Shown piece after piece: positions 2,945 to 62,008 of a stretch of DNA of 64,000 bases. The notes below the pieces were generated by a model. It saw only the letters and a list, made by a program, of their open reading frames with translations, did not search any database and was not told the DNA's origin. A program made the translations under genes and the position numbers. Source of the DNA: a bacterium (lineage in GTDB: Bacteria > SZUA-79 > Acidulodesulfobacterales > Acidulodesulfobacteraceae); contig JAJZVN010000002.1 of the NCBI GenBank assembly GCA_021845685.1, positions 1-64,000 on the forward strand, in the 5' to 3' direction. Numbering within the stretch: the first letter of the stretch is position 1; the number at the start of each line of letters is the position of its first letter.

Positions 2945-3972
2945 CTGCAAGTGTAAACAATAATAATAGTAATAGTATAAATGATAGCGTTAATAGTAAT
3001 AATATAAATAATAACAGCAGTAATAGTGATAATAGCTTAAAACCGTCAAAAAGAAATGAACTAGAAATTACTAATATAAATAATAACAGCAGTAATATTG
3101 ATAATAGCGGCGTCAATCATAATATAAATAAAATAGCTGCCGACGATAATTTGCCGTCTGAAAAACGTAATAACGATAACGGCAGCAGTAATCTTAATAT
3201 AAAATACGGCAAAATTACTTTAATCGGAACAGGACCTGGGGATATTAAACATTTAACAAAAACCGCGGTTGAAGCAATAGAAGAGTGCAGCGTTATTATA
3301 GGATATTCTACTTATCTTAAACAAATTAGTAATTTATTGAGAGAAGAACAGAAAAAACTGCATTTTAATATGAAAGATGAAATTACAAGATGCGAAGCGG
3401 CAATAAGCAAATCTATGGAAGGCGAAAACGTTGCAGTTGTTTCCGGAGGCGATGCAGGTATTTACGGTATGAGCGGACTTCTCTTAGAATTATTAGACAA
3501 AAAATCGTTAATAGGTAAAATTCCTTTAGATTTTATACCTGGCGTTCCTGCTTTTTGCGCTGCAGCATGTTCTATAGGCGCCCCGATAATGAATGATTTT
3601 TGCGTTATTTCATTGTCAAACCTGCTCACTCCATGGAAAGACATAGAAAAAAGACTAGATTTTGCTTCAAAAGGTGATTTTGTCATAATTATTTATAATC
3701 CTAAGAGTGCTAAAAGAAAAGATGAATTGACTAATGCTAAAGAAATTTTATTAAAAAATATTGATAAAAATAGACCTTCCGCAATTGTGAAAGCAGCTTC
3801 AAGACCAGATGAAGAAATAGTTATTACAACCCTCGAACATATAGACAAATTTGATTTAATCAGTATGAATACGACTATTATCATTGGCAACAGTACAACA
3901 TTCGTAAAAGATTTCTACATGATTACAAAAAGAGGATACGGCAATAAATATAATTCCTTAAATCACCGTTAG
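2899..3972 (+). CDS. cbiH: (Cobalt-)precorrin-3B C17-methyltransferase with Asn/Ser-rich N-terminal extension
   Basis: CbiH/CobJ contracts the ring and methylates C17 of the precorrin-3 intermediate. The catalytic domain starts only at about residue 105 with KITLIGTGPGDIKHLTKTA, followed by VIIGYSTYLKQI, VVSGGDAGIYGMSG and DFIPGVPAFCAAA, all diagnostic. The first ~100 residues are an Asn/Ser/Asp low-complexity extension built from AAT/AGT/AAC codons, absent from the usual ~240-aa family member. The domain ends normally with DFYMITKRGYGNKY. The last few residues and the stop codon TAG (3970-3972) lie inside the terminal inverted repeat of the adjacent palindromic element, so that insertion supplies the stop. 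An internal start near residue 100 cannot be excluded but would still lie in this frame. Confidence 0.9.
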   Translation: MQEEKRKYNNSGGNIAASVNNNNSNSINDSVNSNNINNNSSNSDNSLKPSKRNELEITNINNNSSNIDNSGVNHNINKIAADDNLPSEKRNNDNGSSNLNIKYGKITLIGTGPGDIKHLTKTAVEAIEECSVIIGYSTYLKQISNLLREEQKKLHFNMKDEITRCEAAISKSMEGENVAVVSGGDAGIYGMSGLLLELLDKKSLIGKIPLDFIPGVPAFCAAACSIGAPIMNDFCVISLSNLLTPWKDIEKRLDFASKGDFVIIIYNPKSAKRKDELTNAKEILLKNIDKNRPSAIVKAASRPDEEIVITTLEHIDKFDLISMNTTIIIGNSTTFVKDFYMITKRGYGNKYNSLNHR

Positions 3973-4119
3973 AAATTTCTTTTTATGGATTCCTGTGCTG
4001 GCAGGAATGACTTTGCGAAGGTTTAAATTTTAACCTATTTGATGTCATTACTGCGAAAGCGGGAATCCAGTATTTATCATATATTGAATCAGTTTTAATA
4101 ATTTCTAACGGTGATTTAA
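3958..4119. mobile_element. MITE-like palindromic element, type A copy 1
   Basis: A 162-bp non-coding element bounded by a 20-bp perfect inverted repeat, TTAAATCACCGTTAGAAATT (3958-3977) and its complement (4100-4119). Inside are the family core blocks GGATTCCTG...GGCAGGAATGAC and GTCATTACTGC...GGGAATCCAG. The near-identical sibling is at 10112-10273 and an inverted copy lies at 61843-62008. Confidence 0.85.
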
Positions 4120-4140
4120 ATTAATTTATAAAAACAATTT

Positions 4141-4213
4141 TATAATCTATAATCTATAATCTATAACTTATAATCTATAATCTATAATTTATAATTTATA
4201 ATTTATAATTTAT
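4141..4213. repeat. Heptanucleotide repeat (TATAATC/TATAATT)
   Basis: About ten tandem 7-bp units, TATAATC drifting to TATAATT, sit directly upstream of the decarboxylase gene. Many units resemble a -10 hexamer, so they could blur promoter position. Confidence 0.8.
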
Positions 4214-4237
4214 GTAATTATCGGAGAATTAAATATT

Positions 4238-5170
4238 ATGAAAATTTTGATTACCGGCGGAGCAGGTTTTATCGGATCTAATTTATGCGAACGACTTTTG
4301 GGCGAGGGCAATGAAATTTTATGTATGGATAATTTTTTTACGGGGTCTAAGGAAAATATCGCAGAATTTAAAGATAATTCTAATTTTGAGACAATAAGAC
4401 ATGATATATCGGAATCTTTTAATATTGAAGCCGATTTCATTATTAATCTTGCCTGTCCCGCTTCTGTTCCATTCTACCAGAAAGACCCTCTTAAAACAAT
4501 GAAAGATAATGTTTTCGGTATTTTTAACGTTATGGAAAACGCAAGGAGATTAAGGATTTCCGTATTGCACACTTCTACATCGGAAGTTTACGGTTCTCCT
4601 TCTGTTCATCCCCAGCCCGAGACTTATAACGGAAATGTTAATCCTGCTTCAATAAGGTCTTGTTACGATGAAGGGAAAAGAGCTGCAGAGACAATTATGT
4701 TTGATTATTATAGAACTTACGGTACAGATATTAAAATAGCTCGGGTTTTTAATACATATGGTCCAAAGATGCTTGAAAATGACGGAAGAGTGGTTTCAAA
4801 TTTTATAGTTCAGGCATTAAAAGGGACTGACTTGACAGTTTATGGAGACGGGAAACAAAATCGTTCTTTTTGCTATATTTCCGATTTAGTTGACGGGATT
4901 ATGCTTTTGAAAAACTCAAAAAAATTTACTGGTCCTGTTAATCTTGGAAATACTTATGAGTTTACTATAATAGAATTTGCAAAATTAGTATTATCTTTAA
5001 CTAATTCTAAATCAAAGATAGTATTTAAAGACCTGCCTAAAGATGACCCTGTTCAGAGACGTCCTGATTTAACTTTAGCAAAAGAAAAATTGGGTTATAA
5101 TCCAAAAATAGATATAGAAACCGGTTTAAAATTAACTATTGAATATTTTAAGAAAAAATTAAGAGTTTGA
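4238..5170 (+). CDS. UDP-glucuronate decarboxylase (UDP-xylose synthase), SDR family
   Basis: A 310-aa extended short-chain dehydrogenase that would convert UDP-glucuronate to UDP-xylose, a precursor for cell-surface glycans. The NAD-binding motif GGAGFIGSNL is at residues 7-16, followed by MDNFFTGSKENI, typical of UXS enzymes. The catalytic Tyr-Lys pair is in SCYDEGKRAAE, and the substrate-binding RVFNTYGPKM and NRSFCYISDLVDG segments are present. The start has a usable GGAG (about 4223-4226) upstream of the ATG. The gene stands alone, between the cobalamin genes and convergent pilC. A related 4,6-dehydratase or epimerase is less likely given the YDEGKR context. Confidence 0.85.
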   Translation: MKILITGGAGFIGSNLCERLLGEGNEILCMDNFFTGSKENIAEFKDNSNFETIRHDISESFNIEADFIINLACPASVPFYQKDPLKTMKDNVFGIFNVMENARRLRISVLHTSTSEVYGSPSVHPQPETYNGNVNPASIRSCYDEGKRAAETIMFDYYRTYGTDIKIARVFNTYGPKMLENDGRVVSNFIVQALKGTDLTVYGDGKQNRSFCYISDLVDGIMLLKNSKKFTGPVNLGNTYEFTIIEFAKLVLSLTNSKSKIVFKDLPKDDPVQRRPDLTLAKEKLGYNPKIDIETGLKLTIEYFKKKLRV

Positions 5171-5211
5171 ATTTAATTTCAAAATTATCACGGTTAACCG
5201 TATTTATTTTA

Positions 5212-5249
5212 CCTTAAATAACCCATTAGAAATTTTATTTTAAGGTTTT
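5212..5249 (+). terminator. Possible terminator between convergent genes
   Basis: CCTTAAATAA (5212-5221) can pair with TTATTTTAAGG ending at 5245, and TTTT follows. The left arm with ACCCATTAGAAATT also resembles a decayed type A element end. A perfect 12-bp palindrome, ACGGTTAACCGT, lies at 5190-5201. Confidence 0.4.
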
Positions 5250-5258
5250 GTTATGTTT

Positions 5259-6470
5259 TTATTTTTTAACAAAATTTATAACGTCTATTATAGGAAGATA
5301 AATAGCAAGCGCTAAAAATAAAACCATTCCGAATATAATAGTTAGGAGAATAGGTTCTATCGAAGCCTGCAATATGCTTAGCTGATGATCTAAATCTTCA
5401 TCAAAATAATCGGCTACTTTGTTAAGCATCTCGTCTATATGCCCTGTTTCTTCGCCAATGCTTATCATTTGGATTACTATAGGAGAAAATATTTTTGAAT
5501 CTATAAAACTCTGGGTAATAGAATTGCCTTTTGCAATTTCTTCCTGCAATTCATCTATTTTTTTTGTAAAATATTTATTTTCCACGGCATTTCTTATAAG
5601 TTCAAATGCCCGGTTAACGGGTATGCCGCTTTGAAATAAAAGACCAAAAATTCTTGTAAATTGACCCATCATGGATTTATAAAAAATACTTCCGAATATA
5701 GGTATTTTTAATTTATATTCATCCCACCATAATCTTCCTTTGGCTGAGTTTAAATAAAGTTTAACAGAAATAATTAATGCTGCAAAAATTGCTAACATAA
5801 TATACCAATAATTAACAAAAAAATTGGAAATGACAACTAAAATTCTGGTTTCAAGGGGAAGCGGCACATTAAAACTGCTGTAAAGCATTGCAAATTTAGG
5901 AATAACAAATCCGATTAATATTGCCGTTGCAATAATTATTGCCGAAATAACCAATTTTGGATAAAATGTAGCGCTTTTAACTTTTGATTTAATCGTCATT
6001 TCTTTTTCCATAAGCAAAGCAATTCTGACTAAAACATCATATAAAAGACCTGTTGACTCTCCTACTTCTACCATATTAACATATATTTCAGAAAATATTT
6101 TTGGATGGTTGCCGAGACTTTTTGCTAATGTTTGACCGCTTTCAATATCATCTTTAACTTCTTGAAGAATAATTTTTAATTTTTTATTTCTAGTGAATTC
6201 TATCAAAGAAGTTAAGCTTTTGCTGATAGGAACGCCGGATTGATATAAAGTAGCAAGCTGGCGGGAAAAAATAATTATATCTTTTTTTGATACAGATTGA
6301 AAAGAAGGTATAAGTTCGCTCATTGAAATACTTGATTTTTCTTCAACCGATAATGGAATCAGTTTAAGATTTTCAATGTTTTTTTCTGCAGCAATCAGAG
6401 AAGCGGCGTCAATTTGACCTACAACCAATTTTCCGTATCTGTCTCTTGCCCTGTAAATATAAATTGACAT
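5259..6470 (-). CDS. pilC: Type IV pilus / type II secretion inner-membrane protein PilC (GspF family)
   Basis: A 403-aa polytopic platform protein of the type IV pilus or T2SS assembly machine, made of two repeated T2SF domains. The N-terminus YIYRARDRYGKLVVGQIDA and the phrases FSRQLATLYQSGVPI, FPKIF-like HPKIFSEIYVNMVEVGESTG and the second-repeat ISIGEETGHIDEML are family signatures. Three hydrophobic segments are visible near residues 170-195, 220-240 and 375-398. Length is normal. It lies downstream of pilB on the same strand, separated by 315 bases that hold a palindromic element. No pilin or prepilin peptidase gene lies in this window. Confidence 0.92.
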   Translation of the reverse strand: MSIYIYRARDRYGKLVVGQIDAASLIAAEKNIENLKLIPLSVEEKSSISMSELIPSFQSVSKKDIIIFSRQLATLYQSGVPISKSLTSLIEFTRNKKLKIILQEVKDDIESGQTLAKSLGNHPKIFSEIYVNMVEVGESTGLLYDVLVRIALLMEKEMTIKSKVKSATFYPKLVISAIIIATAILIGFVIPKFAMLYSSFNVPLPLETRILVVISNFFVNYWYIMLAIFAALIISVKLYLNSAKGRLWWDEYKLKIPIFGSIFYKSMMGQFTRIFGLLFQSGIPVNRAFELIRNAVENKYFTKKIDELQEEIAKGNSITQSFIDSKIFSPIVIQMISIGEETGHIDEMLNKVADYFDEDLDHQLSILQASIEPILLTIIFGMVLFLALAIYLPIIDVINFVKK

Positions 6471-6606
6471 TTTTAATTATGTTAGTTTTTAAATTAATAA
6501 TATTATTATTCTAATTATTATTATGAAGTTATTATGAAGCTTATCGGCATTATATTATATTATTATACTATATTATTATATTAATATAATAATATCCCTT
6601 TTTCTA

Positions 6607-6767
6607 AAAATTGCCTATAGAAATTATTAAATATACTGCAATGCATTAATAACGTTAGATTATTGCTTTTGCAAGAATGACACCTAACGGGTGAACTTAT
6701 AAAATCCCTCAAAGTCATTCCAGCTTTAGCGGGAATCCAGAAAATAAAATTCCTAACGGTGATTTAA
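6607..6767. mobile_element. MITE-like palindromic element with hybrid ends
   Basis: The core blocks (GCAAGAATGACACC and AAAGTCATTCCAGC...GGGAATCCAG) match the family. The left end (AAAATTGCCTATAGAAATT) is type B and the right end (AATTCCTAACGGTGATTTAA) is type A, so the ends pair poorly. It sits between pilB and pilC and fills most of the 315-base gap. Confidence 0.7.
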
Positions 6768-6785
6768 GTATATAATATTATTTAT

Positions 6786-8537
6786 TTAAATATCCAGCGT
6801 TGCCTGAAGAACTTCTTCAATAGTAGTAAGCCCCTCTATTACTTTTAATATGCCATGTTGTCTTAATGTCATAAAACCATTTTTAACTGCAGTATCTCTC
6901 ATAACAGAAACATCTGCTTTTTCTAAAATTAGTTTTTGTAAATTTTTGTCCGGGATTAATAATTCATATATAGGAATTCTTCCATTAAATCCAGTATCTC
7001 TGCATGCGGGACAGCCTTTTTCTTTATAAAAATAAACCGTTTTATCTTCAGGCAAACCTAATTCTTTTAATAATTCGACATCGGGGCTATACGATTCTTT
7101 GCATTTATCGCAAAGTTTTTTTAGCAGTCTTTGTCCTATAATGCCGATAATAGAAGAAGCTATTAAAAATGGTTCTATTTCCATATCTATCAATCTTGAT
7201 ATTGTGCTTGAAGCATCTTGCGTATGCAGCGTTGAAATAACAAAATGACCTGTCAGGGAAGCTTGTATTGCTATTTTTGCAGTTTCTAAATCTCTTATTT
7301 CTCCAACAAGTATAATGTCGGGGTCCTGTCTTAAAACGGATCTTAAAATATTAGCAAAATTCATTCCTCCTTTAAGGTTTGATTCAACCTGATTGATATA
7401 TTTTATTTTATATTCAACAGGATTTTCAACCGTAACTAAATTTTTGTTTATTTTATTTAATTCTGTTAAAATGGAATAAGCGGTTGTTGTTTTGCCTGAG
7501 CCCGTGGGTCCGGTTATCAGAAATAAACCGTATTTTTTATTTACGAGTTTTAATATTTTGTCTTTTGTTTTATTATCTATATCGTCGGATTCCGAGATTT
7601 TGTGTATCTTAGATGATTTGTCCAATATTCTAAGAACCGCTTTTTCTCCGTTTATAGTGGGAAGAACGGAAACTCTTATGTCAAGTTCTTTTCCCGAAAG
7701 CGTAATATTAAATCTTGAATCCTGAGCATTTCTTTTTTCAGCAATATCCATATTAGACATTATTTTAATTCTTGCAATCAAAGGATTAATAAATTGTTTC
7801 GGGATTTTTTTAGTTTCAAAAAGTTCGCCGTCTATCCTTTCTCTAATTAAAATTTCGTCTTCTAATGGTTCTACGTGGATATCCGAAGCTCTGTTCTTGG
7901 ATGCCGAAACTATTATATCGTTAACTAATTTAATTATATTTATATCTTCAGATTCCATAATTTCTTTATTTATTTCGGGATTGACGGATGATGATGTATC
8001 AAAGACTGAATATGCCCCGATATCTTTCTGCGGCTCTTTGTTTAAATTGAGATTTATATGCTCATTTTTATCGGCTTTTATTATATCTTTCGCAGAATAA
8101 ACAAAATCAATAGCCCTGAGTATTTCATGCTCTCTCGCAACTGCAATTTCTATATCATAGCTGACTGTTTTTTTTAAAGCATCTACCGCAAAAACATTTA
8201 AAGGGTCCGACAGCACTACCGTTAGAGTATTTCCATAAAGATTAATTCCAACCATTTTGAACTGTCTTGAAAGAGTTTCTGGCAAAATTTTACCGACCGC
8301 AGGATCAATAGCTATTTTTGATAATTCTATTTTTTTAATGTTTAACTGCTGCGATAAAGCATTAATTATATTGTCTTCCGATAGAATATTAAGAGTAACT
8401 AAAGCAGCGCCGAGCCTCATATTTCTTTTTTTAGCCTCGGTAAGAGCATATTCTAATTGTGTCGCATTAAGAAGCTTGGAATCAACTAAAATTTCCCCAA
8501 GTTTTTTTGATTTCAACAAATTGTTTAAAATTGCCAT
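6786..8537 (-). CDS. pilB: Type IV pilus / T2SS assembly ATPase PilB (GspE family)
   Basis: A 583-aa hexameric ATPase that powers pilus or pseudopilus extension. The N-terminal ~150 residues are an MshEN-type domain (LGEILVDSKLLNATQLEYAL), which in relatives can bind c-di-GMP. The ATPase core has Walker A GPTGSGKTTTAYSIL, the Asp box region RASDIHVEP, Walker B-type DPDIILVGEIRDLETA and the His box TGHFVISTLHTQDA. A four-cysteine zinc site is visible as CDKC and CPAC near residues 485-530. Length is normal. It precedes pilC in the same orientation and follows aroD. A GspE assignment remains possible because no pilin context is available. Confidence 0.93.
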   Translation of the reverse strand: MAILNNLLKSKKLGEILVDSKLLNATQLEYALTEAKKRNMRLGAALVTLNILSEDNIINALSQQLNIKKIELSKIAIDPAVGKILPETLSRQFKMVGINLYGNTLTVVLSDPLNVFAVDALKKTVSYDIEIAVAREHEILRAIDFVYSAKDIIKADKNEHINLNLNKEPQKDIGAYSVFDTSSSVNPEINKEIMESEDINIIKLVNDIIVSASKNRASDIHVEPLEDEILIRERIDGELFETKKIPKQFINPLIARIKIMSNMDIAEKRNAQDSRFNITLSGKELDIRVSVLPTINGEKAVLRILDKSSKIHKISESDDIDNKTKDKILKLVNKKYGLFLITGPTGSGKTTTAYSILTELNKINKNLVTVENPVEYKIKYINQVESNLKGGMNFANILRSVLRQDPDIILVGEIRDLETAKIAIQASLTGHFVISTLHTQDASSTISRLIDMEIEPFLIASSIIGIIGQRLLKKLCDKCKESYSPDVELLKELGLPEDKTVYFYKEKGCPACRDTGFNGRIPIYELLIPDKNLQKLILEKADVSVMRDTAVKNGFMTLRQHGILKVIEGLTTIEEVLQATLDI

Positions 8538-8742
8538 ATTATATTATTTTATTAATAAAACGCTAAAAGTGAAATTTAAAAACAAACTTTATTATATGTT
8601 ATATAGTTGATATGTTATATATTTACAAAAAAAATAAAAAAAATAAGAATTAATTTAATAATTTATTAATTTAATAATTAAAAATAAGAATTAAAATTAA
8701 TGATTTAAAAAATAAAAATAAATAATGAAGAAATTAAAATAA

Positions 8743-9525
8743 TTAAAATATAAGATTGCAAGAATTATAAACTTTATTAAATAAATCAATATTTAGCTGA
8801 CCGGGAGCGGTTGATGATCCGTTGTCTACAGAACAATAAGCCAAAAAAGAACCATAATTTAATGAAAGAACCCGCGTTAATTTCCCTTTATCTCCCATGC
8901 CGAAAATTATAAATTCAGGATAATTTTCAATATCCGAATTTCTAATTTCATTTATTTTATCACAAATGGACAATATATCTAAAGCTTCCTGTTTTGATGT
9001 AATTATTGCCGCCATTTTAAAAAAATCTGCTTTTAGACAGCTTGCTTCAATATAAAATTGCATTGCTTTTTCTAAATCAATAAAAGAGTTAAAATCATGT
9101 ACCGATAAAATAACCTCGGAGTTTTTGCTATGAGCAAATTCTATAAAATCGGCAATTAAATATTTGTCTGTTGTATCTTGTTCAATATCAACGGTTTTTA
9201 TTCCGTTATTTATCAATTTTTTTAAAAAAGATAATTTATCTATTATTATATCGGATTTATTTTCAATAATATTAGCATCTTTATAAATATTTCTTTTAGT
9301 TGCTATTATAGGGAAATTGAATTTTTTGCTATAAAAAATTATTTCTTGAAGATATTTATTAAATAACAATTCTTCATTAAAATCATTTAAAAGATCAAAT
9401 CTGATTTCAACGCATGAGTAGTTATTATTTATAGCATATTCAACGGCAGAAATAACTTTTGAGGTTTCTATGCTTCCGATTGATGCGCAAATGCATGGTT
9501 TTTTATTAATTTTGGATAATATCAT
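8743..9525 (-). CDS. aroD: 3-dehydroquinate dehydratase, type I
   Basis: A 260-aa class I dehydroquinase of the shikimate pathway, forming 3-dehydroshikimate through a Schiff-base lysine. Recognisable segments are CASIGSIE near the start, VEIRFDLL (substrate-binding Glu-x-Arg), VILSVHDFN with the catalytic His, and ADFFKMAAI with the Schiff-base Lys. The C-terminal end is GSSTAPGQL, matching the family. Length is typical. It is upstream of pilB on the same strand with about 200 AT-rich bases between them, so co-transcription is possible but not evident. The ATG at 9525 has only a weak purine-rich leader. Confidence 0.9.
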   Translation of the reverse strand: MILSKINKKPCICASIGSIETSKVISAVEYAINNNYSCVEIRFDLLNDFNEELLFNKYLQEIIFYSKKFNFPIIATKRNIYKDANIIENKSDIIIDKLSFLKKLINNGIKTVDIEQDTTDKYLIADFIEFAHSKNSEVILSVHDFNSFIDLEKAMQFYIEASCLKADFFKMAAIITSKQEALDILSICDKINEIRNSDIENYPEFIIFGMGDKGKLTRVLSLNYGSFLAYCSVDNGSSTAPGQLNIDLFNKVYNSCNLIF

Positions 9526-9597
9526 TTTATTTTTTATTTTTTTTATTTTTATATTAATGATTATTTAATATAAAAATTTATATTTTATGATTATTTT

Positions 9598-9646
9598 ATT
9601 TATTATTTATTATTTATTATTTATTATTTATTATTTATTATTTATA
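9598..9646. repeat. Heptanucleotide repeat (TATTTAT)
   Basis: About seven tandem copies of TATTTAT in the divergent spacer between aroD and the tautomerase gene. No genes are in this stretch. Confidence 0.8.
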
Positions 9647-9746
9647 TTTATAATTTTTATTAACTATTTTTTAATACAATCATAATATAAATTTTTAATT
9701 TAAATATATTATATTATGGAAGTTTATTATAATTTTATAATTTGTT

Positions 9747-9941
9747 TTATTTTTTAATTTTTTCTGACGCAAGGATTCCTCCTAATCCCCATTCGTCTTT
9801 TGGGAAATCTTCTACGACAACCCAAACATGCGATATATCTAAATCTAAAGAATCGGCAACAGATTTTGAAACAGATTTTATTAATTTTTCTTTTTGTTCT
9901 TTTGTTCTTCCTTCCAGCATTTTAATAGATATAAAAGGCAT
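9747..9941 (-). CDS. 4-oxalocrotonate tautomerase family protein
   Basis: A 64-aa protein matching the small tautomerase subfamily (4-OT/DmpI). These form hexamers that use the amino-terminal proline, exposed after Met removal, as general base. The sequence begins MPFISIKMLEGRTKEQKE, placing Pro at position 1 of the mature chain, and continues with SVSKSVADSLDLD and VWVVVEDFPKDEWGLGG, typical of the family. A strong Shine-Dalgarno (GGAGG) precedes the start on the minus strand. Its substrate cannot be told from context: neighbours are aroD and a non-coding stretch. Confidence 0.88.
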   Translation of the reverse strand: MPFISIKMLEGRTKEQKEKLIKSVSKSVADSLDLDISHVWVVVEDFPKDEWGLGGILASEKIKK

Positions 9942-10111
9942 AATATTTTCCTCCTTAAGAATTAAATATAGTATTAAGAGTTAAAAACGTAAATTAAAGA
10001 ATAGCGAATACTAATATTAATGGTTACCGATAATTAATAACAATCGCTTTTTTATTGTTTAGATTAAAGTTATATTGTTTATATAATATCTTTTTATATA
10101 ATTATAATACC

Positions 10112-10273
10112 TTAAATCACCGTTAGAAATTTCTTTTTATGGATTTCTGCGTTGGCAGGAATGACTTTGCGAAGGTTTAAATTTTAACCTATTTGGTGTC
10201 ATTACCGCGAAAGCGGGAATCTAGTATTTATCGTATATTGAATCAGTTTTAATAATTTCTAACGGTGATTTAA
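10112..10273. mobile_element. MITE-like palindromic element, type A copy 2
   Basis: A 162-bp element with the same 20-bp terminal inverted repeat as the copy at 3958-4119 and only a handful of internal substitutions. The similarity suggests recent mobility. It lies in a gene-free region. Confidence 0.88.
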
Positions 10274-10372
10274 AGTAATATTAATATTTATGCCATTTAT
10301 ATAATATCTTATTTATATATAATATTTATGTCAATTAAAAATTTCTATTAAGAAGATTTAGCTAAATATATT

Positions 10373-10402
10373 TTGACATTTATATAAATTATATATTACA
10401 AT
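10373..10402 (+). promoter_or_regulatory. Sigma-70-like promoter for a small RNA
   Basis: A perfect -35 TTGACA at 10373-10378 and a -10 TACAAT at 10397-10402 are separated by 18 bases. A transcript would start near 10409 and run into the terminator at 10509-10546. No protein gene follows before that terminator. Confidence 0.6.
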
Positions 10403-10408
10403 AATATC

Positions 10409-10546: not shown

Positions 10547-10594
10547 ATTTGTCATAGACATTTTAATAATTGATGACCAAAGATAAAAAAATTA

Positions 10595-12084: not shown

Positions 12085-12164
12085 TTTATTGAATTATTGA
12101 AGTACTTCAATCGCAAAAGTTATTTAATTTAATATATTAATTCTTAATCATGTAATTGGATTTT

Positions 12165-12325
12165 ATATTTATGGATTCCTGTATTTGAATGAATGACAAT
12201 GAATGACCTTGAAAAATTTTAAAAGATTTTATCTTTTTACCCGTTAAGCGTCATTCCCCTATATGCTGGATCCCATAGTTCTTAAAATATTGCTTTGTAT
12301 TTAATAGTTTCTATTGCAGGACTAA
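12165..12325. repeat. Degenerate MITE-like element
   Basis: Fragments of the family core are recognisable: ATGGATTCCTGTATTTGAAT followed by GAATGAC, and GCGTCATTCCCC...GCTGGATCCC. The ends no longer match each other. It occupies the 356-base spacer between the SDR and glucoamylase genes, which has no ORF. Confidence 0.4.
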
Positions 12326-34370: not shown

Positions 34371-34426
34371 AAAATATATAAATATATGATACGCAAATAG
34401 CTCTAAATTATAAATAATATTTACTC

Positions 34427-34586
34427 TAAAATTGCCGATAGAGATTATTAAATATACTGCAATGCATTAATAACGCTGGATTCTTGCTTTGCAGGAATGG
34501 CATTCAACGGATGAACTTTTAAAATCTCTCAAAGTCATTTCCGCGTTGGCGATAATACAAAACTATAAATATCTATCAGTAATTTA
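34427..34586. mobile_element. MITE-like palindromic element, type B
   Basis: The left end TAAAATTGCCGATAGAGATT and right end AAATATCTATCAGTAATTTA are imperfectly complementary and match the type B ends at 55647-55809. The core GCTTTGCAGGAATGGCA and AAAGTCATTTCCGCG is conserved. It fills half of the 316-base gap before tilS, which otherwise holds nothing recognisable. Confidence 0.65.
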
Positions 34587-50120: not shown

Positions 50121-50305
50121 AACCCAAATCCCGATTTATAATTTTATAATCTGGTTTCCTGCTTTTGCAGGAATGACTTTTTGAGGTTTTATCGTTTTAC
50201 CTTTTGGGTGTCATTAACTTGTCGGTTGTCATTCATGCTTTTGCAAGAATCCAGAGTCATTTAGCATTAGAACTTATAAATAGTTTATAAATCGGGATTT
50301 GGGTT
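50121..50305. mobile_element. MITE-like palindromic element, type C
   Basis: A 185-bp element with perfectly matched ends, AACCCAAATCCCGATTTATA (50121-50140) and its complement ending at 50305. The core is the common family core (TTCCTGCTTTTGCAGGAATGAC, in two parts, and GCTTTTGCAAGAATCCAG). The ends are unlike types A, B and D. It lies between lysC and cimA. Confidence 0.85.
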
Positions 50306-53486: not shown

Positions 53487-53558
53487 AAAAATGGAGAAAA
53501 GAAATACATATATATTTATTATATAATAAATATAAAAATATTGTCAATACAAATCTTT

Positions 53559-53788
53559 AATCCTTTCATAGAAACTATCACTATAAATAATATTTCAATA
53601 ATAAGCAATACTGGATGACCGCTTCGCTCTCGGTTTGTAGTCTCGTGAACAGAAACGGCATGCGGTTTCTATCTTCGGAACTTTCCTGCTTCCGCAGGAA
53701 TGACATCTGACGGATAACACAATAACTCCTCTAAAAGTCATTCTTGCGGAAGCAGGAATCCAGAAAATAAATTTTTATGAAAGAAGGA
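53559..53788. mobile_element. MITE-like palindromic element, type D (long form)
   Basis: Ends are AATCCTTTCATAGAAA (53559 onward) and AAATTTTTATGAAAGAAGGA (to 53788), imperfectly complementary. The family core TTCCTGCTTCCGCAGGAATG and AAAGTCATTCTTGCGG...CAGGAATCCAG is present. An extra ~60-base GC-richer insert (53617-53685) makes it longer than other copies. It lies in the 653-base gap before tRNA-Ser; besides this and the terminator nothing else is seen there. Confidence 0.7.
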
Positions 53789-53966
53789 CTAAGCGTTATA
53801 TTGGAATATCTTAAAAAATACACTTGAAATTTATAAACAATAAATGTTAATCTATAAAGATTATATTATAAATATTAAAAAGTAAATAAAGATTGATTAT
53901 AGTTTAGATTATATTCAATAAATATAATCTAAAAATTATAAGCAGTTTAAAAATAAACAATTTTAA

Positions 53967-54233: not shown

Positions 54234-54358
54234 ATTATTTATATTTATTGTATTTGTATTGCGGTATTATTATTTTTTGATATACAAAAAATAATATAAT
54301 AAAATATTTATATGTTTAATGATTAATATTATAATGTTGCCATTATGGAGGTATAAAA

Positions 54359-54631: not shown

Positions 54632-54789
54632 CAATAAAAAACAATTATGGATTATTAATCTGTTATTATTAAATCGGTAGTTTTATATTTCAATATGTAA
54701 GTGTTTTATGCTTTCTTATCCGACTAATTAACATATTGCGGCTTATATTTAACAGGAAAAAGAATACAGAATACAAAAAATGCAGGTTT

Positions 54790-55473
54790 TTACTTTTTCT
54801 TGATCACATAAAAATGACTGACATTCACTGAAAAATTTTTAGTACCTGTAGGCACATTAAGAAAAACAACCATAAATTTTATAGGGTGTTGAGGTAATAT
54901 CTCTAAATCTGACATATTATTTCCGTTTTTATTTTGCAATGCCTGATTTATTGAGACGTTAGACATTGTCTTTAGTTTATTTATATTTATGAAATTTCCT
55001 GCATAAACATACTTTGTCGCTAAAATTATATTTTTTGAACTATACAGATTGGACTTTAATTTTGCGAACCCGATTGGAAATTTATTGTTATTTAATAAAA
55101 ATCCTGTTATTAATAAATTATTTTCAGGCAATGTTTTAGATCTATAAAGTTTAGTCTTTAAATTAAAAATTTTTATGTGTATATTGTTGTTCGGATAAAA
55201 TGTTTTAAAGATATAATATATAGAAATAATCGCCGCTATAGATAAAAAAATATAAAAAATTTTCTTGCCTATAGTGTTATATCTTATTTCCCTATTTTGG
55301 TTATTTTTTTTTTGAAATTTATTGTTTTCGGAAGTTTCCGATAGTTTTTTTCTTACATTTTGCACGTTTATATTTTCGCTAAAATCATCTAACGTAAAAT
55401 CAATATTTTTATTTTTATCTTTACTTTCCTGACCTTCCTGAAGATTATCGTTTCCCAAAGTCCAGCGTTCCAT
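54790..55473 (-). CDS. Single-pass membrane protein with DUF3426-like domain
   Basis: A 227-aa protein with a polar, Asn/Lys-rich cytoplasmic N-terminus (~70 residues), one helix (IFYIFLSIAAIISIYYIF) and an extracytoplasmic beta-rich region. The latter follows the DUF3426 pattern: NLLITGFLLNNNKFPIGFAK, VYAGNFININKLKTMS, and ILPQHPIKFMVVFLNVP. Related proteins in Desulfobacterota usually start with a zinc ribbon (MJ0042 type), which is not visible here. Function is unknown. It converges toward tatA. Confidence 0.65.
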   Translation of the reverse strand: MERWTLGNDNLQEGQESKDKNKNIDFTLDDFSENINVQNVRKKLSETSENNKFQKKNNQNREIRYNTIGKKIFYIFLSIAAIISIYYIFKTFYPNNNIHIKIFNLKTKLYRSKTLPENNLLITGFLLNNNKFPIGFAKLKSNLYSSKNIILATKYVYAGNFININKLKTMSNVSINQALQNKNGNNMSDLEILPQHPIKFMVVFLNVPTGTKNFSVNVSHFYVIKKK

Positions 55474-55646
55474 ATCTTTGTATTTGTAATAATTCTAATT
55501 AATTTTTATTATTATATTATTTCATTATTTCATTATATCATATATTATATCATATTTTTATTTGGTTTTAATTAAATTTTTGATATTAATTAGTTAATTA
55601 ATTATCATACTATAATATAAAAAGTTAATCTAATATTTAGATTATC

Positions 55647-55809
55647 CCAAAATTGCTGATAGAAATTATTGAGAATACCGCAATATTTCAACAATAATGG
55701 ATGCCTGCCTTCACAGGAATGACACCCAACAGGTGAATTTTTAAAATCCATCAAAATAATTTCCGCGTGGGCGGAAATCCGGTCTATAAATTTCTATCGG
55801 CAATTTTGG
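55647..55809. mobile_element. MITE-like palindromic element, type B
   Basis: A 163-bp element with ends CCAAAATTGCTGATAGAAAT (55647 on) and TTTCTATCGGCAATTTTGG (to 55809), one mismatch apart. The core TGCCTTCACAGGAATGACAC and TTTCCGCGTGGGCGGAAATC is present. It occupies part of the 705-base gap before the GGDEF-EAL gene; the rest of that gap shows nothing recognisable. Confidence 0.85.
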
Positions 55810-56178
55810 TATTATAGTTTAGATTATATATATAATAATAAATTAATGTAATATTAAATAGTTATAAATGCCTATATTTACAATAGTACAATAAAAATTC
55901 CTAACATCAATTTGGCAACCGCTATGTTTAAAACAAACAATATAATAATTTTTTAAAAAATAGTTTAAAATAAAAAAAGTTAATTTTAATATTAATTATT
56001 AATATTTGTATTTTTATGTTTGCATGATATTATTTAATTATAAAATAAAATGCTATCTATGTATGTGTATGTGGTATGTGTATGTGCCCAGTATCTAAAA
56101 ATATTCTAAAATATCCAGGCGGTTTTACAATGTAGATTAGATTAAATTATAGTTATACTATAGGTAAAAAATAAAATA

Positions 56179-58317
56179 TTGAATAAGTTTTGTAAGTTGC
56201 TTTTATTTTTAACAGACGAACAAAAATTCAAATCTTTTTTCTATAATCTGCCCCTTCCTTCTTTTATTGTTGATATTGAAAGCGGTTGTTTTATGGATGT
56301 CAACAATTCTGCCGTAAAATTTTACGGTTATTCAAAAGAAGAATTATTAAACATGAGCGTGGCGCAAATAAACATTTCTAACACCCCTCAAGAACTTAAA
56401 ATTTTCAGAAAAACAGCGGCGGTAGAGGGTAGCGGGGTCACTACTTTTGAACATAGACTTAAAAACGGTGAAATAAAAATAGTCCAGCCTCATGCGGCCG
56501 CAATTACATTAAATAATAAACAGTGCTTACTCGTAATAATTTTAGACATTACCGAAAACATAGCAAATGAAAAATGGATGCATACTCTTTACATGGCAAT
56601 AGAAAATAGCCCCGATTGGATGATGGTGACCGATAATCTTGGAAATATTGAATATGTTAATGACGGCGTGAAAAATATAAGCGGATATAAAAAAGAAGAG
56701 TTACTAGGAAAAAATCCGAGGGTTTTCAAATCCGGATTGCTTAGCGCCGGATTTTATAAAAATTTCTGGGATATAATAAATTCAGAAAAAGTTTTTAACG
56801 GTATTTTTATAAACAGAAGGAAAAACGGCGAATTATTTAGTTTAGTAACAACGATTGTTCCTGTAAAAAATAAAAAAGATTTTAAAGTTATAAATTTTGT
56901 GTCAATAGGTAAAGATATAACGCAGGAAAAGGCATTGGAAGAAGAATTAAGATATATCTCGATTTATGACAATTTAACCGGACTTCCGAATAGGAATCTC
57001 TTTATCCTTACCATTAATATCTACTTTAACAGTAGAGAATACAGAGAGAAAAAATTGAGTGCTTATCTTATAATAATTGATGTTTATAAATTATCCTATA
57101 TTAACAATACCTATGGATATGATATCGGGGATAAAATTCTGCAAAGATTTTCAAAAAGATTAAATAAAATTATAGGGGTTGGTGATATAGTTGCAAGGAT
57201 AGGCGGAAACGAGTTTGGAATATTATTTGTTGATTTACAAAATAAAGAAGATATTTTACAGATAATTGATAAAATAAAAGAAGAATTTAAAAATCCTTTA
57301 TATGTTAGTAAACTTTCCGCTCTCAATTCGGAGACAAAAGACTGCAGCGTTGTCAATGCAAATGAAGATAATACAATAATACCCGAGTCATTTAATATTT
57401 CTTACACTATGGGGATATCTATCTTTCCTGATGACGGAAAAAATGCGGATGATATTTTAAAATCAGCCTATATTGCCCTTTTAAAAGCAAAGACTCAGGG
57501 GGAAGGGGGATTAGAATTTTTTAAAGCATCAATGAACATAGAAGTATCCGAGTTTTTACTGATAAAAGATAATATAATAAACGCATTTAAAAATAGAGAA
57601 TTTTTAATCTATTATCAACCATATTTTGACATAAAAACAGGCAAAATAAGCGGCATGGAGGCTTTGGCAAGATGGAACAACGGGGATAAGGGAATTATGC
57701 CCCCTGTTAAGTTTATTCCTCCCCTTGAAAGAACAGGGCTTATACGGCATTTTGAAGAATATTTAATAGATACTATTTGCAGGAACTTAAAAGAGTGGAA
57801 AGAAAAAGGTCATAATATTGTGCCTGTTTCCATAAATATATCACCTGTCAGTTTTAGAAAATCAGGTTTAATAGACATGATAGCTTCCGCATTAGACAGA
57901 TACGAAATAGCGCCGTCATTGATTGATATTGAAATAACGGAAGGCGTGTTTATACAAAATCTTGGCGATACTCTTAAAACATTAAATGCTTTTAAAGAAA
58001 AAGGAATTAAAATTTCCATAGATGATTTCGGCACCGGTTATTCTTCTTTATCTTATATAAAAAATATACCCGCAGATTTTATTAAAATAGATATTTCATT
58101 CATAAGAGGTATGATGAAAAGTTCTAAAGATCTGGCAATAGTTAATACAGTTGTAGTTCTTGCTTCTAAATTGGGCATGAAAACTATCGCCGAAGGAGTG
58201 GAAACCGAAGAACAGTTAAAAATATTAAAATCTTTCGGATGCGACATTGTTCAAGGATATTTATTTTCAAAACCCGTACCTGAAGATAAAATTTTATATT
58301 TTTTAAAACAGCCGTAA
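56179..58317 (+). CDS. PAS-PAS-GGDEF-EAL c-di-GMP signalling protein
   Basis: A 712-aa protein with two PAS sensor domains (residues ~15-125, LPSFIVDIESGCFMDVNNSA; ~130-255, GNIEYVNDGVKNISGYKKEE), a GGDEF domain (~265-450) and an EAL domain (~460-710). The cyclase motif is GGNEF rather than GGDEF/GGEEF, and no RxxD inhibitory site is visible, so cyclase activity is doubtful. The phosphodiesterase side looks active: GMEALARW, IDDFGTGYSS, KIDISFI and AEGVETEEQ. No membrane helix is seen. The TTG start at 56179 is the first possible after a stop at 56161 and is uncertain, but the first PAS domain needs a start near here. Confidence 0.88.
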   Translation: MNKFCKLLLFLTDEQKFKSFFYNLPLPSFIVDIESGCFMDVNNSAVKFYGYSKEELLNMSVAQINISNTPQELKIFRKTAAVEGSGVTTFEHRLKNGEIKIVQPHAAAITLNNKQCLLVIILDITENIANEKWMHTLYMAIENSPDWMMVTDNLGNIEYVNDGVKNISGYKKEELLGKNPRVFKSGLLSAGFYKNFWDIINSEKVFNGIFINRRKNGELFSLVTTIVPVKNKKDFKVINFVSIGKDITQEKALEEELRYISIYDNLTGLPNRNLFILTINIYFNSREYREKKLSAYLIIIDVYKLSYINNTYGYDIGDKILQRFSKRLNKIIGVGDIVARIGGNEFGILFVDLQNKEDILQIIDKIKEEFKNPLYVSKLSALNSETKDCSVVNANEDNTIIPESFNISYTMGISIFPDDGKNADDILKSAYIALLKAKTQGEGGLEFFKASMNIEVSEFLLIKDNIINAFKNREFLIYYQPYFDIKTGKISGMEALARWNNGDKGIMPPVKFIPPLERTGLIRHFEEYLIDTICRNLKEWKEKGHNIVPVSINISPVSFRKSGLIDMIASALDRYEIAPSLIDIEITEGVFIQNLGDTLKTLNAFKEKGIKISIDDFGTGYSSLSYIKNIPADFIKIDISFIRGMMKSSKDLAIVNTVVVLASKLGMKTIAEGVETEEQLKILKSFGCDIVQGYLFSKPVPEDKILYFLKQP

Positions 58318-58502
58318 AATTATAAATCTAAAATAATACATTCGGTAATTTTAGGATTGATACGCTTTATTTGACTTTTGCGTTAATTGTGATATATTTA
58401 AAATATATTTATATAATAACTAATATTTATTAAAACTTAATTATTAGTTATTGTTAAATGTAAAAATTGCATTATTATAATAATAATAAATATTATTAAT
58501 TA

Positions 58503-59177
58503 TTGATTGTAAATCAGGAGGAAAATAAAATTTTTAAAACTTTGTATTTATCTTTAAAGAAAAGTCTTTTATTTTATTCATCTATTTTTTTTATACTATT
58601 TTGTTTTGTGTTGTTTAACAATAATAGCAATAGCTTAAAAAAAGCTTACGCTGGTGGATTTATGTTTAGTATAAACACGCCAAATATAAATTTCAGCATA
58701 GGAAGCGGGGTTAATGCATTTTTTTCTCCGTCATATGAAAATTATATTTATAGTGCTAACGGTATGTATTATATGTGGGCATCAAATAATTGGTACTACG
58801 GATTATATTCCGAAGGACCATGGTATCCGTTATCGCTTTCTTATGCTTATATGCTGCCGGGACCTTTAGCTTACGGACCGCCTATGCTTCCGCCGGGACA
58901 GCCCGGACCGCCGCCGCCTCCGCCTCCAGGACCAGGACCGCAGCCTTTTGGACCTCAGGGACCACCTCCTCCTCCTCCTCCAGGACCTGGACCGCAGCCT
59001 TTTGGACCTCCAGGACCGCCGCCTCCGCCTCCAGGACCAGGACCACAGCCTTTTGGACCAGGTGGACCTATGGGACCGCAGCAAGGACCGCCGCCTCCTC
59101 CAGGACCGCAGCCTTTTGGACCTCAGGGACCGCCGCCGCCTCCGCCATCGGGTGGACCGGGACATCCTGGACCATGA
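58503..59177 (+). CDS. Secreted Pro/Gly-rich repeat protein
   Basis: A ~220-aa protein of unknown function. A basic N-terminus and hydrophobic stretch (SLLFYSSIFFILFCFVLF) end in LKKAYAGG, a probable signal peptide cleaved after AYA. A Tyr/Trp-rich middle (MYYMWASNNWYYGLYSEGPW) precedes ~95 residues of Pro/Gly repeats with recurrent GPQPFGPQG flanked by poly-Pro. The start is unclear: the TTG at 58503 has no ribosome site, while AGGAGG (58516-58521) is ideally placed 8 bases before an in-frame ATT (58530), suggesting a rare ATT start. The repeat part is strikingly GC-rich for this genome. Confidence 0.7.
   Translation: MIVNQEENKIFKTLYLSLKKSLLFYSSIFFILFCFVLFNNNSNSLKKAYAGGFMFSINTPNINFSIGSGVNAFFSPSYENYIYSANGMYYMWASNNWYYGLYSEGPWYPLSLSYAYMLPGPLAYGPPMLPPGQPGPPPPPPPGPGPQPFGPQGPPPPPPPGPGPQPFGPPGPPPPPPGPGPQPFGPGGPMGPQQGPPPPPGPQPFGPQGPPPPPPSGGPGHPGP
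58900..59170. repeat. GC-rich minisatellite encoding poly-Pro/Gly
   Basis: The sequence ACCGCAGCCTTTTGGACC, or a one-base variant, recurs at about 58937, 58991, 59042 and 59105, spaced 54, 51 and 63 bases. All spacings are multiples of three, so length changes keep the frame. Confidence 0.85.
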
Positions 59178-59264
59178 TATAGGGGACGATACTATGGACA
59201 TATATTTATAAATAGAAAGGTAATGCGATGCGATGTGAGGTAAAAAATTTGGCAAATAATATTA

Positions 59265-59360
59265 GGAAGCGGATAGTGGGCTGGTGCTCCTCGTTGACTT
59301 CAAATCAATTGGCGCCCCCAATAAGGGTGAGGTGGGTTCGATTCCCATACGCTTCCGCCA
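59265..59360 (+). tRNA. selC: tRNA-Sec(TCA), selC
   Basis: A 96-base tRNA with an extended acceptor stem beginning GGAAGCGG and ending CGCTTCC-G-CCA. The anticodon loop lies in TTGACTTCAAATCAA (anticodon TCA). It has a very long variable arm (GGCGCCCCCAATAAGGGTG) and a T arm with GGTTCGATTCC. The layout matches bacterial selenocysteine tRNA and implies that the organism makes selenoproteins. It is not a UGA suppressor Trp or Ser tRNA, given the eight-base acceptor stem and arm length. Confidence 0.93.
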
Positions 59361-59418
59361 GTAAATATCATTTTATTAAATTATTAAAATAAATTGATTA
59401 ACTTAATGGAGGTAAAAT

Positions 59419-60342
59419 ATGCCTTTGGTATCCGCTAAGGAAATACTTGATGATGCAAATAAGAAAAATTACGCCGTAGGAGCTTTTAATATTAACGACA
59501 TGGAATTCTTGAAAGCTATTTTTTCGGCTGCTGAATCTGAAAAAGCGCCTATCATCATCGCTGCAAGTGAAGGAGCTATAAAATATGCAGGAGCGGAAAT
59601 GCTTTATGCTATGACAAAAACAATGGCGGATAAGTCTAAAATACCCGTCGCTCTTCATTTAGACCATGGTTCAAATCTTAATTCAGTTTTAATTGCTATT
59701 AAAGCAGGTTTTACATCAGTTATGATTGATGCTTCGCACTATCTTTTTGAAGAAAACCTAAAAATTACGAAACAAGTCGTCAATATTTGCAAACCGTTGG
59801 GAATTTCGGTAGAGGCAGAACTCGGAAGACTAAAAGGTATTGAAGACAATGTTTCTGTTGCCGACAGAGATGCGGTTTTGATTAATCCTGCTGAAGCTAA
59901 AGATTTTGTCGAATCTTCAGGAATTGACTTTCTAGCTCCGGCAATCGGTACATCGCACGGAGCATTTAAATTTAAAGGCGAAGCCAAGTTAGATTTTGAA
60001 AGATTAAAAAAAGTAAAAGAACTTACACATATCCCTCTTGTTTTACACGGCGCTTCATCCGTTCCTGAAAGAGCTTCTAAAAAATTTGAGGAATTTGGCG
60101 GAGATTTAAAAGGAGCAAAGGGCGTTCCTTTTGATGTTTTAAAAGAAGCAATAAAATATGGCATAAATAAAGTAAATACCGACACTGATTTAAGAATTGC
60201 TTTTCTTGCAAAGGTAAGAGAAAGCTTTGCCACGGATAAGTCTCAAATAGACCCGAGAAAAATTTTCGGTCCTGCAATGGAATATGTTACAGATGTAATA
60301 AAAGAAAGAATGAAAATTCTCGGATGTTCAGGTAAAGCTTGA
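59419..60342 (+). CDS. fba: Class II fructose-bisphosphate aldolase
   Basis: A 307-aa zinc-dependent aldolase of glycolysis and gluconeogenesis. Zinc and active-site segments are visible: VALHLDHGSNLNSVLIAI with His ligands and the catalytic Asp, VMIDASHYLFEEN, VEAELGRLKGIEDN, FLAPAIGTSHGAFKF, VLHGASSVPE and KVNTDTDLRIAF. Length is normal. GGAGG is 7 bases before the ATG. It starts 58 bases after tRNA-Sec. Confidence 0.95.
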   Translation: MPLVSAKEILDDANKKNYAVGAFNINDMEFLKAIFSAAESEKAPIIIAASEGAIKYAGAEMLYAMTKTMADKSKIPVALHLDHGSNLNSVLIAIKAGFTSVMIDASHYLFEENLKITKQVVNICKPLGISVEAELGRLKGIEDNVSVADRDAVLINPAEAKDFVESSGIDFLAPAIGTSHGAFKFKGEAKLDFERLKKVKELTHIPLVLHGASSVPERASKKFEEFGGDLKGAKGVPFDVLKEAIKYGINKVNTDTDLRIAFLAKVRESFATDKSQIDPRKIFGPAMEYVTDVIKERMKILGCSGKA

Positions 60343-60543
60343 CCGTCTATATATAAATAAATTATTAAATTAAGATGATATTAGTATTTTTGTAGTTTTG
60401 TTTTTACATGTGTTGTTTAAATTTTAGCATAGTAAATAGTAATATGATATTAAAGGTTAGTCGTTTGGTCTTTTATATATAAATAAATAATAACTTAAAA
60501 AACTCATACTCTGATCTCTATCTCTTATTTTTTATTTTAAAAT

Positions 60544-60726
60544 ACCGCGGGGCATGCGGAAATTTAAGCCTGTAGAATATTCTAAAACCCTTGGGGGTCA
60601 GGAATGAAGCGGAACGGACGAAAATTAGTTGCCGGCAGCAGGAACTATTGGGAAACCGTGAGGGATTATCTGTCCTTATATCTTATATAATGACTCCTCT
60701 TGCTTTAGCAAGGAGGGGGATGTCAA
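60544..60726 (+). pseudogene. Decayed TnpB C-terminal relic and IS605-type right end
   Basis: From 60544 the frame reads TAGHAEI-stop-ACRIF-stop-NPWGSG, then later NYWETVRDYL. The T-A-G...A-C and E-T pattern repeats that of the better preserved relic at 33047-33172. It ends in the hairpin CTCCTCTTGCTTTAGCAAGG (60694-60713, continuing AGG) and GATGTCAAG, resembling a transposon right end. The two in-frame stops show decay. It lies in the 584-base gap after fba, which otherwise holds nothing recognisable. Confidence 0.5.
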
Positions 60727-60926
60727 GTGTGAACTTACTTGAAAATAATATAAGCATTGTTCTTTCATAAAAAATTATTTAACATTAATTATTTAAATTA
60801 TTTAAAGATTTAAAAAAAGAATAATACTTATATTATTTATTATATTTATTTTTTTATATGTTTACTATTCATTTAATATTTATGGCATTTTTTTTAGCTT
60901 AAATTATATTGCTTGCTTTATTGTAT

Positions 60927-61346
60927 TTATTGTTTTTCAGGGACAGCACAAGAGTGTCCTGCCATAAGTTCCATAAATACCGTATCGCAATAAACCGCAA
61001 TCTCATCCAATTTTTTTTCAACCTTTTTTTCAGAAAAATAGGGTATTAATTGGTTTAATAAAATTGATAATTTTGGTTCTAAATCTTCTTTAGAAATTTT
61101 CTCAAGATTAAAATTAGATAAATTTGATTTTTTTATTGAGTTTGATATTTCATCTAAAATCATCCCCGTAAAAGAAATAATACTTGATGCCGCATCTCTT
61201 TTATTTTCATTTAACCCGCAATCTTTTACATAATCTATATAAGATTTTATTTCACTAAAAATTTTATCTATTTTATCTTTATCGTTATCAAAATTATTTT
61301 TGTTATTATTCTTGCTATTGCTACTGTTGTTTGTTAAATTTTCCAT
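60927..61346 (-). CDS. Hypothetical protein with Asn-rich N-terminus
   Basis: A 139-aa soluble protein that I do not recognise. The first ~25 residues are Asn/Ser/Lys low complexity; the rest is predicted mostly helical (KIFSEIKSYIDYVKDCGLNE, KKVEKKLDEIAVYCDTVFME) and ends MAGHSCAVPEKQ with two of its three cysteines near the C-terminus. Its start overlaps the end of the upstream small gene by 26 bases, so the pair is an operon on the minus strand, divergent from the type IV secretion genes. Confidence 0.6.
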   Translation of the reverse strand: MENLTNNSSNSKNNNKNNFDNDKDKIDKIFSEIKSYIDYVKDCGLNENKRDAASSIISFTGMILDEISNSIKKSNLSNFNLEKISKEDLEPKLSILLNQLIPYFSEKKVEKKLDEIAVYCDTVFMELMAGHSCAVPEKQ

Positions 61347-61545
61347 TATATTTTTCTAATGCCTCCGCATTATTTTTTCTGATTCTTAGTTCTTCAAGCA
61401 CATCGCTTGCTTTAAATATTATAACACGTTTGTATAATTCTTCAATTTCTTTTTTTTCACGCAATTTATTATTTATTTCATCAATAAATTGCTGATAGCT
61501 CTTACGCTGTCCTTTTTTTAATTTTCTTTTTTTAATTTTTTTCAT
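61321..61545 (-). CDS. Hypothetical small basic protein
   Basis: A 74-aa protein, Lys/Arg-rich at its N-terminus (MKKIKKRKLKKGQRKSYQQF) and probably a helical coiled coil thereafter (INNKLREKKEIEELYKRV, VLEELRIRKNNAEALEKY). AAAGGAG precedes the start on the minus strand. It overlaps and leads the 139-aa gene. No family was recognised; nucleic-acid binding or a conjugation accessory role is possible from charge and context only. Confidence 0.6.
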   Translation of the reverse strand: MKKIKKRKLKKGQRKSYQQFIDEINNKLREKKEIEELYKRVIIFKASDVLEELRIRKNNAEALEKYNGKFNKQQ

Positions 61546-61842
61546 GGCTGCTCCTTTTATTTAATAAATATTTTTAAGAATTAAATAATATCATTTTAAT
61601 GTTACATTTTTATGACATTTTTAAATAAAAAATAAAATAAATAGAAATAAAATTTACGGCAAATATTGCAAATTTATTAATAATATTAAATATATATATA
61701 GCTATTTAAACAAAACTTTAATATTTAAATAATAAATTTGAAATAAAACTGACATAATATTGTAATGTTTAAATGATATAAATTTATATTATGAAATAAA
61801 AAATAAAATAGAATTAAATTTATTCAAATTAAATATATAAAT

Positions 61843-62008
61843 TTAAATCACCGTTAGAAATTATTAAAACTGATTTAACAAACATATGATAAATACTGGA
61901 TTCCCGCTTTCGCGGGAATGACGCCAAATAGGTTAAAATTTAAACCTTCGCAAAGTCATTACTGCGTTGGCAGGAATCCAGAAAAAGAAATTTCTAACGG
62001 TGATTTAA
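61843..62008. mobile_element. MITE-like palindromic element, type A copy 3 (inverted)
   Basis: A 166-bp element with the same TTAAATCACCGTTAGAAATT ends as copies 1 and 2, but with the interior in the opposite orientation (GGATTCCCGCTTTCGCGGGA first). It sits in the 541-base spacer between the divergent hypothetical genes and the virB2-like gene; no other feature is seen there. Confidence 0.88.

What the first reader, a model, noticed from the sequence alone, without database searches (positions are those of the whole stretch)
3958..62008. MITE-like family whose two ends co-vary from copy to copy
At least nine elements (3958, 6607, 10112, 12165, 34427, 50121, 53559, 55647, 61843) share the core GGATTCC-GC...GC-GGAATGAC and AAAGTCATT...GGGAATCCAG, but carry at least four different terminal sequences. 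In most copies the left and right ends are complementary to each other even though they differ between copies (CACCGTTAG, TTGCCGATAG, CCCAAATCCCG, CCTTTCATAG types). Ordinary MITEs keep their ends and lose the middle; this family does the reverse. It may indicate selection for folded RNA or DNA, or ends copied from targets.
Basis: partly seen in the sequence, partly recalled or inferred. Interest (0 to 1): 0.7.

Follow-up and report, generated by a model that had tools for sequence, protein, structure and literature searches.

The report
Shared DNA core with swappable ends
These are about a hundred tiny jumping-DNA passengers, apparently moved by at least four different helper enzymes (IS1380 transposases) that each have their own pair of ends; what is unusual is that one hairpin-rich middle piece has been reused on all of these end pairs.

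Summary
The nine elements belong to one family of about 165-bp mobile elements: about 100 core matches in this 3.04-Mb genome, many more in related genomes, and few, weak matches outside the taxonomic family. End types match left to right in 108 of 117 typed copies (shuffled mean 34.6). The cause is ordinary: each main type (T1-T4) inserts with a 5-bp target duplication (60/108 against 2.9 expected). Autonomous IS1380-family elements here or in relatives carry the same end types. In a close relative one window copy has an exact empty site and three more are absent. Within a type and genome, left and right ends do not co-vary copy by copy (14 shared variants against 11.9 shuffled; 87/1000).

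What remains unusual is the core: two dRS3-like hairpins and a linker, shared by end frames whose transposases are only 27-40% identical. Across genomes the core is about as similar between types (0.775) as within them (0.789). One genome holds T2-ended and T4-ended copies with 98.8% identical cores. Best reading: MITEs mobilised in trans by IS1380 transposases, with a core that moves between end frames, probably by recombination. New variant of a known kind.

The parts
3956..4121 (-). T1/T1 element, 166 bp; TSD TAATT at 3951-3955 and 4122-4126; its TIR supplies the stop codon of the gene 2899-3972
   Evidence: exact empty site in G002:C10; alignment
6604..6768 (+). Hybrid element: T2-like left end, T1 right end; no TSD; present in G002 too
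10110..10275 (-). T1/T1 element; TSD TAATA; absent in G002 (AT-rich repeats at the site)
12143..12323 (-). Decayed T3-like element, present in G002 too; limits approximate
34425..34580 (+). T2 element with decayed right end; site in G002 partial (part of the left end only); right limit approximate
50123..50303 (-). T4/T4 element with a duplication in the core; absent in G002, no clean TSD
53555..53793 (+). T3b element with a roughly 64-nt insert in a hairpin; site rearranged in G002
55646..55810 (+). T2/T2 element; apparent TSD ATTAT; a T2 element in the opposite orientation lies at the same place in G002
61841..62010 (+). T1/T1 element; TSD TATAA; absent in G002
61896..61981 (+). Example of the 86-nt core: hairpin A, 32-nt linker, hairpin B
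   Evidence: covariance model R2 match, 98.6 bits; local hairpin co-variation

Best explanation
These are MITEs, short elements with no gene of their own. Their ends and 5-bp target duplications are those expected of IS1380-family transposases acting in trans on the terminal inverted repeats. There are at least four transposase lineages in this bacterial family (T1, T2, T3/T3b, T4), and each is flanked by its own pair of ends; so the two ends of a copy must match, while end types differ between copies. Between the ends sits a common core: two dRS3-like hairpins joined by a 32-nt linker, not found at the ends of the autonomous elements inspected. The core has been passed between end frames, most likely by homologous recombination or conversion between copies of different types. 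Shown: end types, TSDs, transposases with the same ends, one exact empty site and further absences in a relative, and nearly identical cores on different ends. Inferred: that these transposases move the elements, how cores are exchanged, and what the hairpins do.
For: Concordant ends 108/117 against 34.6. 5-bp TSD 60/108 against 2.9; T1 21/37, T2 19/41, T3 10/12, T4 10/17. IS1380-family transposases (NF033539: 280, 225, 228 and 204 bits, cut-off 180) flanked by T1 (L112, L113, L118), T2 (L119-L121), T3b (L122) and T4 (L111, L117, L143) ends. Transposase tree follows end type. Empty site at 3958 in G002; 10112, 50121 and 61843 absent there. Core exchange: L218 (T4) and L217 (T2) cores 98.8% identical, ends 77%; core identity across genomes 0.775 between and 0.789 within types; single clade rejected for T4 (p 0.005) and T3 (p 0.039) cores; the same insert at the same hairpin junction with T1, T2, T3 and T3b ends. 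Hybrids, mostly without TSD.
Against: Only two IS1380 lineages were found in this genome: T1 (both copies broken by TGA) and T4; no T2 or T3 transposase was found here, and no element with main-form T3 (GCGATAG) ends was found anywhere. Cores are short (86 nt), the tree is poorly resolved, and T1 and T2 monophyly are not rejected (p 0.22, 0.10). Type labels cluster on the tree far above chance, so exchange is not frequent. The shared insert could be repeated site-specific insertion.
Confidence: 0.85

Rival explanations
1. Vertical co-divergence: one ancient MITE split into subfamilies alongside its transposases. Ends followed the enzymes, while the core stayed similar because it is under selection as structured RNA or DNA. 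No core was exchanged.
For: Type labels cluster on the core tree (14 changes against 36.7 shuffled); T1 and T2 monophyly not rejected; end prefixes track the transposase tree.
Against: L217/L218 share 98.8% of the core with different ends, while transposases of those types are 37-40% identical; core identity across genomes hardly depends on end type; T4 and T3 clades rejected.
Confidence: 0.12
2. The ends pair because the folded RNA or DNA stem itself is selected, or because one arm is corrected from the other (palindrome-templated repair).
For: Strong folding of whole elements (z -9.7 and -11.6); local hairpins co-vary.
Against: No copy-by-copy co-variation of ends within genome and type (14 against 11.9); T1 left and right ends keep different outer bases; autonomous elements carry the same end types.
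Confidence: 0.04
3. Cores are exchanged by a site-specific process that acts at the dRS3-like hairpins (for example an enzyme that uses them as target), not by general recombination.
For: Hairpin A fits ATTCCC(N8)GGGAAT, a phage integration target in Neisseria (PMC3898611); an insert recurs at one position of a hairpin arm.
Against: No such enzyme was looked for or found; ordinary recombination between copies suffices, and hybrids without TSD fit it.
Confidence: 0.12
4. Ends are copied from the target site at each insertion.
For: None found.
Against: Only 5 bp of target are duplicated, outside the TIR; the empty site at 3958 holds no TIR sequence.
Confidence: 0.01

Closest known systems
IS1380-family insertion sequences (NF033539, PF13701; e.g. 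ISEcp1)
   Same: TIRs of the same types; 5-bp duplication as reported for ISEcp1 (PMC2887853); autonomous members with the same ends in the same and related genomes
   Different: The MITEs carry no gene, and their hairpin core was not seen in the terminal regions of the autonomous elements
MITEs of bacteria, such as Correia elements (CREE) of Neisseria
   Same: Short, intergenic, TIRs, TSDs, many copies, mobilised in trans
   Different: One core on at least four end types; CREE are reported with mainly TA and some 3-5 bp duplications (PMC9330008)
[quoted passage not shown]
   Same: Non-autonomous, and known to build mosaic structures (PMC4133298)
   Different: Tn3 ends; not one core shared among different end sets
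dRS3 / neisserial intergenic mosaic elements (NIMEs)
   Same: 20-bp palindromes ATTCCC(N8)GGGAAT combined with 30-160 bp repeats; hairpin A fits the pattern (PMC3898611)
   Different: Here two hairpins lie inside a unit with its own TIRs and TSD

Membership tests
MITE mobilised by IS1380 transposases | Short, no transposase gene, terminal inverted repeats | tested here: met
   About 165 bp, matching TIRs in 108/117
MITE mobilised by IS1380 transposases | TIRs shared with an autonomous element of the family | tested here: met
   T1, T2, T3b and T4 ends on IS1380 elements; main-form T3 only through T3b
MITE mobilised by IS1380 transposases | 5-bp target duplication | tested here: met
   60/108 against 2.9; empty site
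MITE mobilised by IS1380 transposases | Movement by that transposase | not testable with these tools
   Needs a transposition assay
Structured RNA family | Match to a described RNA family | tested here: not met
   Only tRNAs found in the window at gathering scores
Structured RNA family | Compensatory changes in stems | tested here: inconclusive
   Core hairpins: 25 double-change cells against 8.6 shuffled, but related copies are not independent; end stem: none within type
NIME (Neisseria) | dRS3 pattern ATTCCC(N8)GGGAAT | tested here: met
   Hairpin A consensus ATTCCCGCTTTCGCGGGAAT; hairpin B is usually a variant
NIME (Neisseria) | RS repeats and dRS3 grouped in intergenic arrays of 200-2700 bp | tested here: not met
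   Single TIR-bounded units with TSDs in the window

The most novel reading that the evidence does not exclude
The hairpin core is itself the selected, travelling unit: it passes between end frames by a process acting at the dRS3-like hairpins, so that it rides on whichever IS1380 transposase is active in the host. A MITE core would thereby outlive the transposase families that carry it.
Probability: 0.2. Interest if true: 0.7.

Novelty: new variant of a known kind. Interest (0 to 1): 0.45.

Why it matters
MITEs are usually thought to die out with the transposase that moves them. A core shared by the end frames of deeply diverged transposase lineages suggests a way round this: change ends, keep the core. 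With several frames, many copies, a close relative with an empty site and natural hybrids in one bacterial family, the question of how MITEs change helpers becomes directly testable. The dRS3-like hairpins also tie such palindromes to a defined transposon.

Tried and rejected
Model R1 was built with a mis-set structure and not used. A literature search by sequence words gave unrelated papers; a search on a suspected lineage name gave nothing useful. The opposed state of hairpins A and B (one C-G, the other T-A at one stem pair: 77 opposed against 31 alike among unique cores) was considered as a sign of selection against a perfect long palindrome; it is left open because related copies are not independent and 26 of 171 cores have all 16 long-range pairs. 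Correction of one end from the other was rejected. The opposite orientation of 55647 in G002 was not settled: inversion through the TIRs or a separate insertion. The host was not identified: the only named relatives are 'MAG: bacterium isolate YF1.bin133' and 'clean584', so no lineage is claimed.

Full report
1. Observation. The window lies in a 3.04-Mb, 199-contig genome. All nine elements are present and align from end to end as one family: TIR, a left subterminal stretch of about 30 nt, hairpin A (CTGGATTCCCGC..GCGGGAATGAC), a 32-nt linker, hairpin B (GTCATTCCTGC..GCAGGAATCCAG), a short right stretch, TIR. An end pattern common to T1-T3 has 131 genome-wide matches against 6 for the reversed pattern. 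In all 178 core matches were collected, 105 of them from this genome. All nine window copies lie between genes, bar a 17-nt overlap at 3958 (coding fraction 0.79; 9/9 by chance about 3e-8).

2. Ends. Of 117 copies with both ends typed, 108 have matching types (41 T2, 37 T1, 17 T4, 12 T3, 1 T3b); shuffling gives 34.6, maximum 49. Concordance is the same in this genome (54/59) and in relatives (54/58). Types T1 to T4 have a 5-bp target duplication directly outside the end: 60/108 against 2.9 expected.

3. Helpers. The genome and its relatives hold IS1380-family elements of about 1.6 kb. Their ends are T1 (own C21 and C192, both genes with a TGA; G013, G022), T2 (G017, G025, G026), T3b (G002) and T4 (own C161, intact; G022; two named MAGs, one of which appears by its contig length to be G022). 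The four proteins tested score 204-280 bits against the NCBI IS1380 model, cut-off 180. Between types they are 27-40% identical, and end prefixes agree with their tree: CCTTAA/CTTTAA for T1 and T3b, CCCAAA for T2 and T4, the deeper forks being only moderately supported. ISEcp1, an IS1380 member, also duplicates 5 bp (PMC2887853). The core was not seen in the terminal 170 nt of the three own-genome autonomous elements.

4. Recent movement. G002, a same-genus relative about 91-98% identical in most aligned blocks and colinear over the window, lacks the element at 3958: the window reads TAATT-[element]-TAATT where G002 has a single ATAATTTATAAAAACAATTTT. Read directly from the two sequences, the insertion changed the end of the upstream gene from KYNL-stop to KYNSLNHR-stop, the stop being the TAG of the TIR. 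10112, 50121 and 61843 are also absent there; 6607 and 12165 are shared; 34427 and 53559 are partial or rearranged; 55647 has a T2 element in the opposite orientation.

5. Is the pairing of ends itself selected? Within genome and type, shared left/right variants number 14 against 11.9 in shuffles, reached in 87 of 1000. Shuffling across genomes gives 3.4, so subfamilies exist, but copy-by-copy co-variation is not seen. T1 left and right ends keep different outer bases. End complementarity is therefore explained by the need for two ends of one type.

6. The core does not stay with its ends. (a) In G027, L218 (T4 ends, TSD CGACA) and L217 (T2 ends, in an A-run giving an apparent TSD AAAAA) share 98.8% of the 86-nt core, while the ends share 77% and the left subterminal 60%; L217 and L219, both T2, share 100% of the ends but 80% of the core. 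(b) Across genomes, core identity is 0.775 between types and 0.789 within types, whereas TIR identity is 0.66-0.71 and 0.87-0.90. Within a single genome types do differ more in the core (0.73 between, 0.85 within), so exchange is not rampant. (c) The core tree needs 12-14 type changes (minimum 3); one clade is rejected for T4 (p=0.005) and T3 (p=0.039), not for T1 (0.22) or T2 (0.10). (d) About 64 extra nt sit at the same position of a hairpin arm in copies with T1, T2, T3 and T3b ends. (e) Hybrids with two end types occur; most lack a TSD, as expected of recombination between copies, while one T3/T3b hybrid has a TSD (TTTTA) and so may have moved with mixed ends; L009, scored as T1/T2, has a TSD and is better read as a mutated T1.

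7. Interpretation. IS1380 transposases acting in trans on MITEs, with the core exchanged between frames, accounts for these results. Recombination between copies is the simplest route; a hairpin-directed route is not excluded. The hairpins co-vary locally, and hairpin A fits the dRS3 pattern of Neisseria (PMC3898611), but no function was shown. Whole elements fold strongly (z -9.7 and -11.6), as any fold-back element would.

8. Limits. The assembly is fragmented, relatives were sampled by best core match, the core is short, host taxonomy is unnamed, and no experiment here shows mobility by a given enzyme.

Noticed in passing
53665-53681 and about 20 further places in the genome (L269-L280): A roughly 64-nt insert (AGTTCCGAAGATAGAAACGCATGCCGTTTCTGTTCACGAGGC..GAGCGAAGCGGTCA) sits at one fixed position in a hairpin arm, in copies with several end types; it may be a core variant or a site-specific small element.
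   Followed up: partly
L048 390-581, L101 3672-3864: A second insert of about 35 nt (TACGGTTTAAAGCCGCCGGTATTTAGGCGGCTC) lies in hairpin B of T1 copies.
   Followed up: no
2899-3972: The insertion at 3956 changed the C-terminus of this gene and supplies its stop codon.
   Followed up: yes
55646-55810: G002 has a T2 element at the same place in the opposite orientation: inversion through the TIRs or a separate insertion.
   Followed up: partly
G000:C61:21394 (L097) and G000:C82:14085 (L099): Very short T1 and T2 elements of about 60-70 bp without the core: end frames exist without it.
   Followed up: no
G009: At least 73 core matches but no PF13701 match: MITEs apparently without a resident IS1380 transposase.
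   Followed up: no
58866-59177: Imperfect GC-rich tandem repeats encoding a proline/glycine-rich stretch in an otherwise 30% GC window, next to a tRNA-Sec gene at 59265-59356.
   Followed up: no
L260: In G005 the end of the gene homologous to 2899-3972 is repeated several times in tandem.
   Followed up: no
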